Source of the DNA: Oceanospirillum multiglobuliferum
GTDB taxonomy: Bacteria > Pseudomonadota > Gammaproteobacteria > Pseudomonadales > Halomonadaceae
Direction of reading: 5' to 3'
NCBI RefSeq assembly: GCF_900167095.1
Contig: NZ_FUXG01000001.1
Coordinates: 186,001-250,000, forward strand
DNA: 64,000 bases
Part shown: in pieces, positions 32,604 to 36,911 of the stretch
Layout of the letters: every line of letters starts with the position of its first letter
Numbering within the stretch: position 1 is the stretch's first letter
Translations under genes and position numbers: made by a program
The notes under the pieces: model-generated
The model's input: only the letters and a program-made list of their open reading frames with translations
What the model was told of the DNA's origin: nothing
Databases searched by the model: none

Positions 32604-32933
32604 ATGGCGTATGACAAAGGCTTAGCGGAGCGTATTCGTGAGCAACTCAAGGGCAATATCTATATCACCGAAAAGAAAATGTTCGGTGGGCTGTGTTTTT
32701 TGCATGACGGCAATATGCTCTGCGGCATCGTCAAAGATGAATTGATGCTGCGCACAGGGCCTGATCTTTATGCAACACTGCTGACCAAACCCCATGCCCG
32801 TGAGATGGACTTTACAGGTCGCCCTATGAAAGGCATGTTAATCGTCGAAACGCAGGGTTTCTCAGAAGATACTGATCTGAAATGGTGGCTAGATCAGGTA
32901 CTGGTGTTTGTAAGCGGGTTGCCGCCGAAATAA
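32604..32933 (+). CDS. TfoX N-terminal domain protein
   Basis: 109 residues, a stand-alone TfoX-N domain: RIREQLKGNIYITEKKMFGGLCFLHDGNMLCGIVKDELMLRTG, then ARPMDF-like AREMDFTGRPMKGMLIVE. Full-length TfoX/Sxy regulates competence, but small single-domain proteins of this type have no proven role. It follows algW by 25 bases. Immediately after its stop codon (2 bases) the repetitive accessory DNA begins. Confidence 0.85.
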   Translation: MAYDKGLAERIREQLKGNIYITEKKMFGGLCFLHDGNMLCGIVKDELMLRTGPDLYATLLTKPHAREMDFTGRPMKGMLIVETQGFSEDTDLKWWLDQVLVFVSGLPPK

Positions 32934-32935
32934 AT

Positions 32936-33177
32936 GCCTGAATGACTTAGTTCAAGAATATAATCAGTCTTTCGAGAGAGCTTATAAAAATACGAATGTC
33001 AGAGAAAGAGATATATCAACAGGTATCGAAAAAATGATACCAACAACTGAAAAATACCCAACATTTTCAGAACGACTTGAAAAGGGCGGTCTAGAGCTTT
33101 TTGCTATACTTAAGTTCTCCCATGAAAGCCCCTCTGACCTATCAAATATCTATTCACTTATAGACCTTAATGCTTAG
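32936..33177 (+). pseudogene. 5'-truncated third copy (copy A) of the tandem unknown gene
   Basis: An open frame of about 80 codons with no start codon that matches the last third of the two full copies at 33388 and 34564 (from LNDLVQEYNQSFE to NIYSLIDLNA and stop). Similarity begins two bases after the tfoX-like stop and ends a few bases into the flanking hairpin. It keeps a clean reading frame and is closer to copy C than to copy B (it shares KNTNVRERDISTGIEKM). Probably a remnant left by unequal recombination; unlikely to be expressed. Confidence 0.85.
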
Positions 33178-33333
33178 CTGTGAGGGTCCGAATGATCGCA
33201 CACCCATTTCGCATACAAAATAACACCTTACCTTCAATTTAATTCTTGCCTATAAAATATAACACTGCGATTAATTTTAAACCCTACACCGCAAATAAAA
33301 CCGAATAAAATACGATATTGCCTATTAATGCTA

Positions 33334-33361
33334 TTCAAATTTTAGCCGATATAACTATAGA
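33334..33361 (+). promoter_or_regulatory. candidate promoter of copy B
   Basis: TTCAAA, 16-base spacer, TATAGA, 26 bases before the ATG; the same sequence precedes copy C. Confidence 0.4.
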
Positions 33362-33387
33362 TTAAAGCCATCTTATGGAGAAAATAT

Positions 33388-34203
33388 ATGGATATTCGTA
33401 ATACATCTTCTTTCCTTTCAACCCTCACAGCTGGCAGTGCTTCAGCAACGACTAAGAACAGGTTGAAATACACGCCTCCTGCCGATGAGGGCATAAACCT
33501 GAAAGAAGCTATTGAAGGGGGTAAAGCATATCAAGAAATGCAAGATCAGCGTCACGCCGAGTATAGGAAAATCTGGGGCGATAATTTTCAAAATGTATTT
33601 AAGCTAGCTCGATCTGCAGAAGATCATTTATCAACAGGGTTTCAAGGCTTTGAAAGCTTCAAAGAAAAGCAAGCCATAGAGCATCCCAATATAGATATAG
33701 ATAGCCTGGATGTTGCCTTGGAAGATGGTCAACTCAAGCTCAGTGCACTCGATGTGAATGGTCAACCTATATCAGATAAACAACTCGCATCAATTGAAGA
33801 CGAGTTTTTTAAAGAGGAAGAGCTAGTTGAGTCACTAACACTTGGCCTATCGGAGCTAACAGAATCAATTGCTCACTCCACATCAGATTTTTTCAGAGAT
33901 TATGACCTTGAGTTCAGCCGCGAGGGTATCGTAAAGGATGGTCGGTTTAGCCTGAATGATTTAGTTCAGGAATATAATCAATCTTTCGAGAAACGCTATA
34001 AGGATTCGAATGAAAGAGAAAGAGAAAGAGAAAGAGATATATCAAAAGGTATTGATAAAATGATACCAACAACTGAAAAATACTCAACATTTTCAGAACG
34101 ACTTGAAAGGGGCGGTCTAGAGGTTTTTGCTACACTTAATTTCGCTCATGAAAGACCCACTGATCCAGCAAATATCTATTCACTCATAGAGCTTAATGCT
34201 TAA
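33388..34203 (+). CDS. unknown tandem-duplicated protein, copy B
   Basis: 271 residues; I do not recognise a family. No signal peptide or membrane segment; the N-terminus is Ser/Thr-rich (MDIRNTSSFLSTLTAGSASA) and the rest is acidic and probably helical, with a charged DLEFSREGIVKDGRFSLNDLVQEYNQSFE stretch and a run RERERERERD near residue 210. ATGGAG precedes the ATG at 9 bases. It differs from copy C mainly near residues 50-80 and in the last 65 residues; the middle (about 85-185) is almost identical. The RE run comes from a six-base tandem repeat absent from the other copies. Function unknown. Confidence 0.85.
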   Translation: MDIRNTSSFLSTLTAGSASATTKNRLKYTPPADEGINLKEAIEGGKAYQEMQDQRHAEYRKIWGDNFQNVFKLARSAEDHLSTGFQGFESFKEKQAIEHPNIDIDSLDVALEDGQLKLSALDVNGQPISDKQLASIEDEFFKEEELVESLTLGLSELTESIAHSTSDFFRDYDLEFSREGIVKDGRFSLNDLVQEYNQSFEKRYKDSNERERERERDISKGIDKMIPTTEKYSTFSERLERGGLEVFATLNFAHERPTDPANIYSLIELNA

Positions 34204-34218
34204 CTGTGAGACCCCGAA

Positions 34219-34257
34219 TGATCGCATAGAAATATAATTATTTTCACTATGCGATCA
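34219..34257. terminator. long perfect hairpin after copy B
   Basis: TGATCGCATAG and CTATGCGATCA form an 11-bp perfect stem around an AT-rich 17-base loop that can pair further (AAATA/TATTT). There is no T-run after it. It is repeated after copy C and disrupted after copy A. Confidence 0.5.
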
Positions 34258-34284
34258 CTCTTAATCTAAAACGTTAATATGTAA

Positions 34285-34411
34285 TTACAAACATGTCCAC
34301 TTTGAACCACCCGTGTTGTAATCTCTCTCGTAGTAAAACATTTTCGCTAACTTTTCTTGGCAGATATGGATGAAATAATTGTTATCTATTGTAGTACCAT
34401 CAGACATCTTA
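34285..34411 (-). pseudogene. detached 3' end of the convergent secreted-protein gene
   Basis: Minus-strand frame encodes about 40 residues ending YFIHICQEKLAKMFYYERDY and then the same last residues as the intact-end copy at 35455. It has its own stop (TAA instead of TGA), and diverges upstream (SDGTTIDNN against PNNTIVDDN). There is no start codon. It is part of repeat unit 1, so the duplicated unit carried the tail of the neighbouring gene. Confidence 0.85.
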
Positions 34412-34509
34412 AATTTAATTCTTGCCTATAAAATAGAACACTGCGATTAATTTTAAACCCTACACTACAAGTAAAACCGAATAAAATACGATATTGCCTA
34501 TTAATGCTA

Positions 34510-34537
34510 TTCAAATTTTAGCCGATATAACTATAGA
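34510..34537 (+). promoter_or_regulatory. candidate promoter of copy C
   Basis: TTCAAA, 16-base spacer, TATAGA, identical to that of copy B. Confidence 0.4.
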
Positions 34538-34563
34538 TTAAAGCCATCTTATGGAGAAAATAT

Positions 34564-35373
34564 ATGGATATTCGTAATACATCTTCTTTCCTTTCAACCC
34601 TCACTGCTGGCAGTGCTTCAGCAACGACTAAGAACCGGTTGGAATACACGCCTCCTGCCGATGAGGGTATAAACCTGAAAGAGGCTATTGAGGGGGGTAA
34701 AGCATATCAAGAAATGCAAGATAAGCGTCTCGCTGAGTCTTCGAAAATCTGGAGCGATAATTTTCAAAATGTATTTAAGCTAGCTCGATCTGCAGAAGAT
34801 CATTTATTAGCAGGGTTTCAAGGCTTTGAAAGCTTCAAAGAAAAGCAAGCCATAGAACACCCCAATATAGATATAGATAGCCTGGATGTTGCCTTGGAAG
34901 ATGGTCAACTCAAGCTCAGTGCACTCGATGTGAATGGTCAACCTATATCAGATAAGCAACTCGCATCAATTGAAGACGAGTTTTTTAAAGAGGAAGAGCT
35001 AGTTGAGTCACTAACACTGGGCCTATCGGAGCTAACAGAATCCATTGCACACTCCACATCAGAGTTTTTCAGAGATTATGACCTTGAGTTCAGCCGCGAG
35101 GGTATCGTAAAGGATGGTCGGTTTAGCCTGAATGATTTAGTTCAAGAATATAATCAATCTTTCGAGAAAGCTTATAAAAATACGAATGTTAGAGAAAGAG
35201 ATATATCAACAGGCATCGAAAAAATGATACCAGCAACTGAAAAATATCCAACATTTTCAGAACGACTTGAAAAGAATGGTCTAGAAATTTTTGCTACACT
35301 TAATTTCGCTCATGAAAGACCCTCTCCCTCTGAACGATCAAATATCTATTCACTTATAGACCTCAATGCTTAG
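34564..35373 (+). CDS. unknown tandem-duplicated protein, copy C
   Basis: 269 residues, paralogue of copy B with the same start context and N-terminus. Same lack of signal peptide or known domain. Differences from B: SSKIWSDNF in place of YRKIWGDNF near residue 60, LLAG in place of STGF near residue 81, no RE-run, and a two-residue longer ERPSPSERSN near the end. Most substitutions are in-frame and conservative, which suggests both copies are or were under selection. It converges on the secreted-protein gene across the 35389-35427 hairpin. Function unknown. Confidence 0.85.
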   Translation: MDIRNTSSFLSTLTAGSASATTKNRLEYTPPADEGINLKEAIEGGKAYQEMQDKRLAESSKIWSDNFQNVFKLARSAEDHLLAGFQGFESFKEKQAIEHPNIDIDSLDVALEDGQLKLSALDVNGQPISDKQLASIEDEFFKEEELVESLTLGLSELTESIAHSTSEFFRDYDLEFSREGIVKDGRFSLNDLVQEYNQSFEKAYKNTNVRERDISTGIEKMIPATEKYPTFSERLEKNGLEIFATLNFAHERPSPSERSNIYSLIDLNA

Positions 35374-35388
35374 CTGTGAGGGTCCGAA

Positions 35389-35427
35389 TGATCGCATAGA
35401 AATATAATTATTTTTACTATGCGATCA
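35389..35427. terminator. long perfect hairpin after copy C
   Basis: Same 11-bp TGATCGCATAG/CTATGCGATCA stem as at 34219; between two convergent genes, so a bidirectional termination role is likely though no T-run is present. Confidence 0.5.
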
Positions 35428-35454
35428 TTCTGAATCTAAAACGTTAATATGTGA

Positions 35455-36911
35455 TCATAAGCATGTCCACTTTGAACCACCCGTGTTGTAATCTCTCTCG
35501 TAGTAACACATTTTTGCTAACTTTTCTTGGCAGATATGAACAAAATAATTGTCATCTACTATAGTATTATTAGGTAAAGAAACCTCATAGAAACCTACGC
35601 CCCAAGCAATATCCCACCATTCAGAAGGATTAGTTGGTGTTCCACTATGCACCCTATTATGGACATCAGGTTCCTCCCTGACTACACCGCACTTATCTCC
35701 TTTCAATGAAACCGATCCATTAAAATAACCGTTCTCATCTGCTAATAGAGTTTGAGACTCCAGCAATCCTGATCCGCCAGTTTGAATACGAACTCTCACA
35801 GATGTGAGCGGAACAGGGTTATTGTTACTATCTTTAACTGTGCCAGAGAAGCTTATACGATCATGGGCTTCAATAGATGCCGTTTTTAGCACCTCTACAT
35901 CATCCAATCTACCCGATTGCACTAAGAGCTTCGTCAGGTTTTCATTATTCCAGGCTTTAAAGCCTGTGACACTCTCAGCTGAGCCTGGATTATGAACACC
36001 CAGAGAGTATTGGGCCGATGCCGGAGGTGGATTACCTGCCGCAGACCGAACCAGGAGGTTAATCGTGGGCCAGGAGTAACATTGTAGGTATTTAACTGGT
36101 TCTTCACTAACTGAACCCAGGCAGCACCATTCCAGATTTCAAATGAAAACTGTTCACTCGCACTAAAACGAAGGCTTAAAAGGCTTTGATCTGGCCCGAC
36201 AGTATAAGAGAAAAAGTCCAGATCATTAGCATTATCCAGATTACCCTGAATCACCGCATTAGTTTGAAGGCTGGTGCTCTGGCCGAATTTATCATTGGCT
36301 TCATACTGGTCAAAGTTATTATAACCGAGCCAGCCTAAAGTGACGGGGTCACCAGAAGAACCCTGAGTCGCCTGAGCAAATAGCACATAAGCACCTGCTG
36401 CAGCCTTAGCAACAGTCTGTTCACTCGTTGAGTTTGGGCTAACAGACGAATCAATAAGCGTGAACTGCCCATCATCTTCATATTTAAAGAAGAAAAGATC
36501 ATAGTTAACGGCTGACGGTATATTCAGCATTAACCCTTCAATTTTTGTCTCGGCATCCACGACAGTACTGACACAATAAGACGATCCTTCCGTATTAAAA
36601 GCAACCAGCGTACCGCTGCCAATCGCTAAATTAGGACAGCCTGTTTCCATTTCGACCTGACTTGCTGTTTTCGATAGCATTTGAAGCTGAGAGGCCATTC
36701 TATTACGTTTTGACTTATATTTTGGCTCAATAGCCAGAGAATACTCTCGCTTTAAGTCTTCATGTTCTCTTGTTTCTTCTCCAACAATATCTACGTAGTC
36801 CGCATTATAAATAGATGGTGGTTGAGTGAAATCAAGAGGCGCATCTTTAATATCGGCATGGGTTACAAATGATGCCAGCAATAGCGTGGCAGAAGATAAT
36901 ATCTTAAGCAT
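35455..36911 (-). pseudogene. secreted PPC / Ig-like domain protein, split by a frameshift
   Basis: Reads as two frames: 36911 to about 36070 (about 280 residues, then 45 residues of unrelated frame to a stop at 35934) and about 36068 to 35455. Joining them by one extra C in the CCC run near 36067-36069 restores GPTINLLVRSAAGNPPPASAQ and a continuous product of about 484 residues. Parts: Sec signal peptide (to about residue 19, THA-D), an unknown region, a PPC-like domain (YEANDKFGQSTSL...NDLDFFSYTVGPDQSL), an Ig-like domain (DRISFSGTVKDSNNNPVPLTSVRVRI), and a Cys-containing tail. Likely periplasmic or extracellular. Recent mutation, phase variation or sequencing error are all possible. Confidence 0.8.

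What the first reader, a model, noticed from the sequence alone, without database searches (positions are those of the whole stretch)
32936..35565. Tandem amplification of an unrecognised gene: one truncated and two full copies
Two direct repeat units of about 1.18 kb abut exactly at 34411/34412, each with the same promoter, gene and hairpin; a third, 5'-truncated copy lies just before. The central ~100 residues of the two full proteins are almost identical while the ends differ, a pattern of gene conversion or selection. I recognise no domain. Local amplification suggests dosage or diversification is useful to the host.
Basis: partly seen in the sequence, partly recalled or inferred. Interest (0 to 1): 0.6.

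Follow-up and report, generated by a model that had tools for sequence, protein, structure and literature searches.

The report
Duplicated flagellum-linked gene of unknown family
A marine spirillum carries two intact copies and one broken copy of a gene from an undescribed protein family that appears to be switched on together with its flagella, and its product may be exported through the flagellum, giving a first concrete clue to what this orphan gene does.

Summary
Window 33232-35573 carries two tandem units of about 1.17 kb, each with leader, a 271/269-aa gene and a hairpin; a 79-codon 3' fragment precedes them. The genome is Oceanospirillum multiglobuliferum ATCC 33336 (size matches the published JGI assembly).

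Gene conversion is not supported; the near-identical core reflects purifying selection (dN/dS 0.09).

No Pfam, NCBIfam, PADLOC or fold match was found for the window proteins. A convergent secreted-protein gene led to a diverged family in 12 of 390 genomes of the order. Sixteen of 19 members, two of them found afterwards, have a sigma28 (FliA) flagellar promoter-like site, TAAA-N15-GCCGATAA, 26-45 bp before the start, against 2 of 270 other ORFs. All 19 lack cysteine (0 of 4,683 residues, 48 expected), as do the flagellins examined. N-termini are Ser/Thr/Pro-rich and predicted disordered.

Best reading: a new family of flagellar-regulon accessory proteins, probably exported by the flagellar apparatus, duplicated in tandem in at least two lineages. 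FliA control is inferred from sequence; export is weaker inference. The window genes' link to the wider family rests on synteny, promoter and a weak profile match.

The parts
32938..33177 (+). 5'-truncated copy (79 sense codons, residues 189-269, plus stop); hairpin cut at about 33200
   Evidence: tblastn 88% identity, E 1.3e-38; repeats D1 and D4; reading frame
33326..33352 (+). sigma28 (FliA)-like promoter site of copy 1, TAAT-N15-GCCGATAT, ends 35 bp before the ATG
   Evidence: own-genome pattern hit G000:C32:219326-219352; consensus passage in PMC4866697
33388..34203 (+). copy 1, 271 aa, no cysteine
   Evidence: ORF; alignment; 0 Cys
34012..34037 (+). hexanucleotide microsatellite (GAAAGA, 4.3 units); copy 1 has 4 extra residues (ERER) here
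   Evidence: TRF; alignment
34216..34260 (.). hairpin after copy 1, between convergent reading frames
   Evidence: strand folding -18.4 kcal/mol, z -7.3; not flagged by the terminator scan
34288..34425 (-). fragment of the 3' end of the convergent secreted-protein gene (about 45 codons) carried in unit 1; the match runs a few bases past the unit join
   Evidence: tblastn place G000:C32:220288-220425, 53%, E 1.2e-9
34502..34528 (+). sigma28 (FliA)-like promoter site of copy 2, same sequence and spacing
   Evidence: own-genome pattern hit G000:C32:220502-220528
34564..35373 (+). copy 2, 269 aa, no cysteine; 96% identical to the O. beijerinckii ortholog
35386..35430 (.). hairpin after copy 2
   Evidence: strand folding -22.3 kcal/mol, z -9.1; not flagged by the terminator scan
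35455..36911 (-). convergent gene for a secreted protein (signal sequence judged by eye) with weak PPC/Ig-like matches; broken here into two ORFs (35934-36911, 325 aa; 35455-35922, 155 aa), intact (491 and 489 aa) in two other Oceanospirillum loci

Best explanation
The duplicated gene belongs to an undescribed family of cysteine-free proteins of 191-283 aa with a disordered Ser/Thr/Pro-rich N-terminus followed by a long helix, a beta-hairpin and further helices. Its members are transcribed by the flagellar sigma factor sigma28 (FliA), so they are made late in flagellar assembly, at the time of flagellin. The most likely mechanism is export of the protein, unfolded, through the flagellar type III secretion apparatus, to act at or beyond the flagellum (filament accessory, adhesin-like or effector-like). 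The duplication in the window copied leader, gene and hairpin as one unit, which raises dose and lets the C-terminal third diverge while the core is kept. Shown here: the repeat structure, constraint on the core, the promoter-like sites, the absence of cysteine, the N-terminal bias. Inferred: FliA control, export, and any role outside the cell.
For: Promoter: 16 of 19 full-length members have at least 10 of 12 matches to TAAA-N15-GCCGATAA within 100 bp upstream, ending 26-45 bp before the start; 0.23 expected from dinucleotide shuffles; 2 of 270 other ORFs in the same loci; Fisher 2e-21. Two of the 16 were found only afterwards, by protein profile. In this genome a gene that looks like pomA/motA (recognised by eye) has TAAA-N15-GCCGATAT, and 2 of 4 flagellin genes scanned have 10-of-12 sites. 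FliA-bound E. coli sites such as flxA and tar have the same N15 spacing (PMC4183435, passages). Cysteine: 0 in 4,683 residues of 19 members, 47.9 expected; 12 of 111 background genes of 180-400 aa are Cys-free; the four flagellins read here, and FlaG of this genome and of O. beijerinckii, are Cys-free, while the secreted partner has 6. N-terminal 40 residues: 42% S/T/N/Q/P vs 26% in 200 ORFs, lower peak hydrophobicity. Models: low-confidence N-terminus and a helix-hairpin-helix core in two predictions from non-overlapping alignments. Constraint: dN/dS 0.33 overall, 0.09 core. Link of the window genes to the wider family: a homolog of the secreted partner (27%, E 5.6e-22) lies convergent to a member in another taxonomic family; hhalign score 27.1 vs at most 23.1 in 400 column shuffles; the window genes are the top two non-members of the family HMM.
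Against: The link of the window genes to the wider family is weak by sequence alone: single-sequence hhalign P 0.64, profile hhalign probability 19.5% and 9.5%, HMM E 0.014 and 0.22 among the locus ORFs, and the profile does not find the window genome at E 0.001. Taken alone, the window sites are 10 of 12 and are reached in 2-7% of shuffles of these AT-rich leaders. The strict pattern occurs 9 times in the own genome against 3 for the reversed control; besides the two window sites, only the pomA/motA-like one stands before an evident flagellar gene start. Two of four flagellin genes scanned reach only 8 of 12. L048 has no site, O. beijerinckii's second paralog 9 of 12, and L051's site lies at -78 from the start I chose. 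Several of the 19 are close relatives, so they are not fully independent, and I chose the start codons of some. Export has no direct test: Cys-lessness and N-terminal bias are circumstantial. The two partial copies of genome G001 show dN/dS 0.94.
Confidence: 0.5

Rival explanations
1. FliA-controlled but cytoplasmic: a motility- or chemotaxis-phase regulator, like other non-structural FliA genes, not exported.
For: FliA also drives genes such as flxA, modA, ycgR, trg and tsr in E. coli (PMC4183435, passages). No export assay exists. The helix-rich core could be a protein-binding module.
Against: Absence of cysteine in all 19 diverged members and a long Ser/Thr-rich, poorly structured N-terminus are more usual for exported flagellar proteins (general rule recalled; the four flagellins and the FlaG read in this genome agree).
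Confidence: 0.25
2. A mobile accessory gene pair whose duplication is driven by its island (selfish or surface-diversity cassette); the flagellar promoter is incidental.
For: In three Oceanospirillum genomes the gene lies next to its convergent partner, at different places: near hisD here, between integrase genes in O. beijerinckii, near hemF/aroE in G001 (hisD, hemF and aroE recognised by eye). Other partner copies are broken, IS-interrupted or fragmentary. The region is AT-rich (37.3% vs 43.9% GC; the 2-kb stretch ranks 4th lowest of 124).
Against: In 10 other loci of the order (L044-L053) no partner homolog was found, and 9 of the 10 hold a single member. No match in phages or plasmids. The promoter-like site is kept in members 19-28% identical to L029's protein.
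Confidence: 0.1
3. Toxin-immunity style array: tandem copies are extra immunity genes next to a secreted toxin-like partner.
For: The partner looks secreted, with weak PPC/Ig-like matches; the copies are tandem; in the window the partner is broken while both copies are open.
Against: The partner has no recognised toxin domain. The genes are convergent, not an operon. No partner in L044-L053. No PADLOC match for the window proteins; among the 13 A4 members only two weak single-member hits (E 0.004 and 0.007).
Confidence: 0.04
4. Relaxed duplication: an old, nearly neutral tandem duplicate on the way to loss, like the truncated copy.
For: One copy is already truncated. Copy 1 has 35 unique changes against 18 for copy 2, clustered in its last third, plus a microsatellite.
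Against: Both copies are open, with promoter-like site and hairpin. The c1-c2 dS (0.14) is about as large as that to the O. beijerinckii ortholog (0.16), yet dN/dS stays 0.33, and 0.09 in the core.
Confidence: 0.15

Closest known systems
Feds (flagellar coexpressed determinants) of Campylobacter jejuni
   Same: [quoted passage not shown] flagellar secretion of some such proteins is recalled.
   Different: No sequence comparison was run. The present family was found in genomes of the order of Oceanospirillum (GTDB order; most unnamed), occurs in tandem copies, and its secretion is untested.
FlaG (PF03646)
   Same: Small flagellar protein, Cys-free in the two read here, N-terminus beginning MKI, with a beta-hairpin region (recalled); one match in this genome.
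   Different: No PF03646 match in the window proteins or the 13 A4 members. hhalign with only 2 FlaG rows scored 16.4 against shuffle maxima of 17.4 (of 100) and 16.4 (of 150), so no relationship is claimed.
E. coli FliA-dependent genes such as flxA
   Same: [quoted passage not shown]
   Different: No direct sequence comparison was run; no Pfam family matches the window proteins at E 1.
Flagellins (PF00669)
   Same: In this genome 2 of 4 scanned have FliA-like sites and all 4 read lack cysteine.
   Different: No flagellin domain; the six PF00669 matches of this genome are other genes.

Membership tests
Sigma28 (FliA)-regulated flagellar-regulon genes | promoter site TAAA-N15-GCCGATAA at the expected distance | tested here: met
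   16 of 19 members vs 2 of 270 background ORFs; window sites 10 of 12, reached in 2-7% of shuffles when taken alone
Sigma28 (FliA)-regulated flagellar-regulon genes | transcription depends on FliA | not testable with these tools
   needs RNA data from a fliA mutant
Flagellar type III export substrates | no Sec signal, unfolded N-terminal region, cysteine-free (general rule recalled) | tested here: inconclusive
   features present but circumstantial
Flagellar type III export substrates | secretion through the flagellar export gate | not testable with these tools
   bench test needed
FlaG (PF03646) | match to the Pfam model | tested here: not met
   no PF03646 match for the two window proteins or the 13 A4 members
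FlaG (PF03646) | profile similarity to FlaG proteins | tested here: inconclusive
   score 16.4, shuffle maxima 17.4 and 16.4, only 2 of 5 FlaG loci parsed
Flagellin | flagellin N-terminal domain | tested here: not met
   six PF00669 matches in the genome, none at the window genes; no Pfam match
Campylobacter Feds | sequence homology | not tested
   no Fed sequence was compared
Toxin-immunity array | partner with a toxin domain | tested here: inconclusive
   only weak PPC/Ig-like and similar matches in the partner and its homologs

The most novel reading that the evidence does not exclude
The window genes belong to a previously undescribed family of flagellum-exported, sigma28-controlled proteins of marine-type gammaproteobacteria that diversifies by tandem duplication of complete promoter-gene units. 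A second, unrelated-looking sigma28-controlled Cys-free family (about 390 aa) accompanies it in two genomes. Flagella of these bacteria would then deliver a lineage-specific set of secreted proteins in the manner of the Campylobacter Feds.
Probability: 0.38. Interest if true: 0.66.

Novelty: new variant of a known kind. Interest (0 to 1): 0.5.

Why it matters
An orphan gene with no domain, named homolog or fold becomes testable: promoter, composition and constraint all point to the flagellar regulon. If export is confirmed, free-living marine spirilla would have a family of flagellum-secreted proteins, a role known mainly from pathogens (recalled). The combination used here, FliA site plus no cysteine plus no domain, could uncover further such families; the 390-aa companion seen beside two members fits it too.

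Tried and rejected
Gene conversion: rejected, no excess of shared tracts. Assembly artefact: judged unlikely (133-bp longest identity), not excluded. Phage or plasmid origin: no tblastn match for window copy 2 or L029's protein in phages or plasmids; none encoding a relative in viral contigs with A2. Known folds: Foldseek best E 0.3 and 0.57; VIA-align best Z 4.4 and 5.6; viral library best E 0.036. Model confidence is moderate (mean pLDDT 67.7 and 72.2), so absence of a match says little. PHROG 'methyltransferase' (E 0.006 and 0.012, 126-position profile) judged chance. FlaG kinship not supported. A sigma70 promoter was not found above chance (6 found, 9.1 expected), and the terminator scan did not flag the hairpins. 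The class-wide search with A4 rang in 0 of 369 genomes but held no known positive. Searches with the narrow alignment A2 found only the own genome (1 of 390, 1 of 369).

Rows left out: the truncated copy and the two partial G001 copies (no upstream sequence) are not among the 19; the two G001 frames read are also Cys-free. Two of six flagellin loci (L067, L068) and three of five FlaG loci (L085-L087) were not parsed by my scripts. L079 and L080 were not checked for the partner gene.

Literature: searches gave no paper that I recognised as describing this family or its regulation in Oceanospirillum; listings were seen, not all papers, and the library holds only open-licence papers. That exported flagellar proteins lack cysteine found no paper and is recalled; it is backed here only by the flagellins and FlaG that I read. 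PMC9856085 was seen only as two reference-list passages.

Full report
What is there. The two full genes are 33388-34203 and 34564-35373, 91% identical. Each unit carries about 156 bp of leader, the gene and a strong hairpin, which the terminator scan does not flag; unit 1 also holds about 45 codons from the 3' end of a convergent gene (window 34288-34425). The unit join lies at 34403-34412. A 3' fragment (residues 189-269, 79 codons) begins 4 bp after the stop of a TfoX_N-like gene (Pfam E 9.5e-14) and loses its hairpin at about 33200.

Selection, not conversion. Between the copies dN/dS is 0.33 overall, 0.30 for residues 1-72, 0.09 for 73-165 and 0.44 for 188-269, with dS 0.14, 0.10 and 0.24 in those three parts. 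Of 78 sites where one of copy 1, copy 2 and the O. beijerinckii ortholog differs, 35 are unique to copy 1, 18 to copy 2 and 25 to the ortholog. Agreement of the two copies against the ortholog never runs longer than 4 sites (2,123 of 5,000 shuffles reach that), while copy-1 changes cluster at the 3' end (run of 9; 82 of 5,000). Synonymous divergence between the copies (0.14) is close to that from the ortholog (0.16), and the tree puts copy 2 with the ortholog, at mixed support (98/58). The duplication is therefore not recent. Against constraint: the two partial copies of genome G001 have dN/dS 0.94.

Distribution within the genus. Of 58 genomes searched, the own one included, 3 have matches, all among the 6 of this genus. 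G002 is O. beijerinckii DSM 7166 (same contig); it has an ortholog (96%) next to a 39-40% paralog. G001 has two partial copies on contig ends, cut at the same residue. In all three genomes an adjacent convergent gene encodes a secreted-looking protein: intact at 491 and 489 aa in O. beijerinckii and one G001 locus, broken into two ORFs here, IS-interrupted in the other G001 locus. In O. beijerinckii the locus lies between two integrase genes.

The wider family. The secreted partner has a 27% homolog (E 5.6e-22) in a genome of another family of the order (G041). Convergent to it is a 272-aa gene of similar build. With that protein as query, 10 of 293 order genomes match; with a 13-row profile, 12 of 390. 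G109 has three tandem members; the first and third are sister copies, the second groups with a member from another genus. The window genes' place in this family rests on the convergent partner, similar order of elements in two separate models (long helix, hairpin, helices), a profile score above all of 400 shuffles (27.1 vs at most 23.1) and a shared promoter-like site. By sequence alone it is weak: hhalign probability 19.5% and 9.5%, HMM E 0.014 and 0.22 among the locus ORFs, single-sequence P 0.64, and no match of the profile in the window genome at E 0.001.

A flagellar promoter. The leader is 93-97% identical between the copies and O. beijerinckii over 156 bp, with one difference in the last 92. 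It holds TAAT-N15-GCCGATAT, close to the FliA site TAAAGTTT-N11-GCCGATAA (PMC4866697, passages). Across 19 full-length members, 16 have at least 10 of 12 matches within 100 bp (9 have 11 or 12), against 0.23 expected by shuffling and 2 of 270 other ORFs. The three exceptions are L048 (8), O. beijerinckii's second paralog (9) and L051, whose site lies at -78 from the start I chose and so outside the 100 bp. L079 and L080, found only afterwards by profile, both carry it. The 390-aa companions in G041 and G109 carry it too (11 of 12); the secreted partner does not (6-9 of 12). In this genome the strict pattern occurs 9 times (3 in the reversed control): the two window genes, one pomA/motA-like gene recognised by eye, and six places without an evident flagellar gene start. 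Two of four flagellin genes scanned have 10-of-12 sites, the other two only 8.

No cysteine, unusual N-terminus. The 19 members hold 0 cysteines in 4,683 residues (47.9 expected). Among background genes of 180-400 aa, 12 of 111 are Cys-free. The companions (779 residues), the flagellins read in 4 of this genome's 6 flagellin loci, and FlaG of this genome and of O. beijerinckii also have none; the partner has 6. The first 40 residues are 42% S/T/N/Q/P, against 26% in 200 ORFs of at least 200 aa (p 1.7e-10), with lower peak hydrophobicity (p 0.007). No Pfam, NCBIfam or PADLOC match was found for the window proteins; the best PDB sequence hit of A2 has E 0.7, and no fold match is convincing.

Interpretation. 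The simplest account is a sigma28-dependent accessory protein of the flagellar regulon, most likely exported by the flagellar apparatus. I put FliA control at about 0.85 and export at about 0.5. [quoted passage not shown] In the window each copy kept its own promoter-like site, and in G109 each of the three tandem members has one, so tandem copies here look like complete transcription units.

Noticed in passing
window 32604-32933; L026 4880-5205 (G000:C23): The TfoX_N-like gene beside the array is a 93% nucleotide copy of a second gene in the same genome; similarity is confined to the coding sequence. In the other contig and in genome G005 a similar ABC-type ATPase gene (by eye) lies upstream nearby, which looks like the original place.
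   Followed up: partly
window 35455-36911: The convergent secreted-protein gene (weak PPC/Ig-like matches) is split into two ORFs by what looks like a frameshift; it is intact in O. beijerinckii and in one G001 locus.
   Followed up: partly
L029 10706-11878 (-) and L045 10767-11936 (+): A second undescribed family of about 390 aa, FliA-type site 11 of 12, no cysteine, next to members of the main family.
   Followed up: partly
L008 6259-7203 and 15065-16255: Two 92% similar integrase genes bracket the O. beijerinckii locus, with further repeated segments, suggesting an island.
   Followed up: no
L010 1048-2622: An IS transposase gene (DDE_Tnp_1_6) interrupts the partner gene in G001.
   Followed up: no
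L030 7152-7529 and L028 213-731: Remnants of the partner gene lie near clpB (by eye) in G001 and G004, a possible older site of the pair.
   Followed up: no
L010 3-635: The C-terminal motif SLIDLNA occurs three times in a row in one G001 copy.
   Followed up: no
window 34012-34037: A GAAAGA microsatellite (4.3 units) in copy 1, where it has four extra residues (ERER): a possible length-variable site.
   Followed up: no
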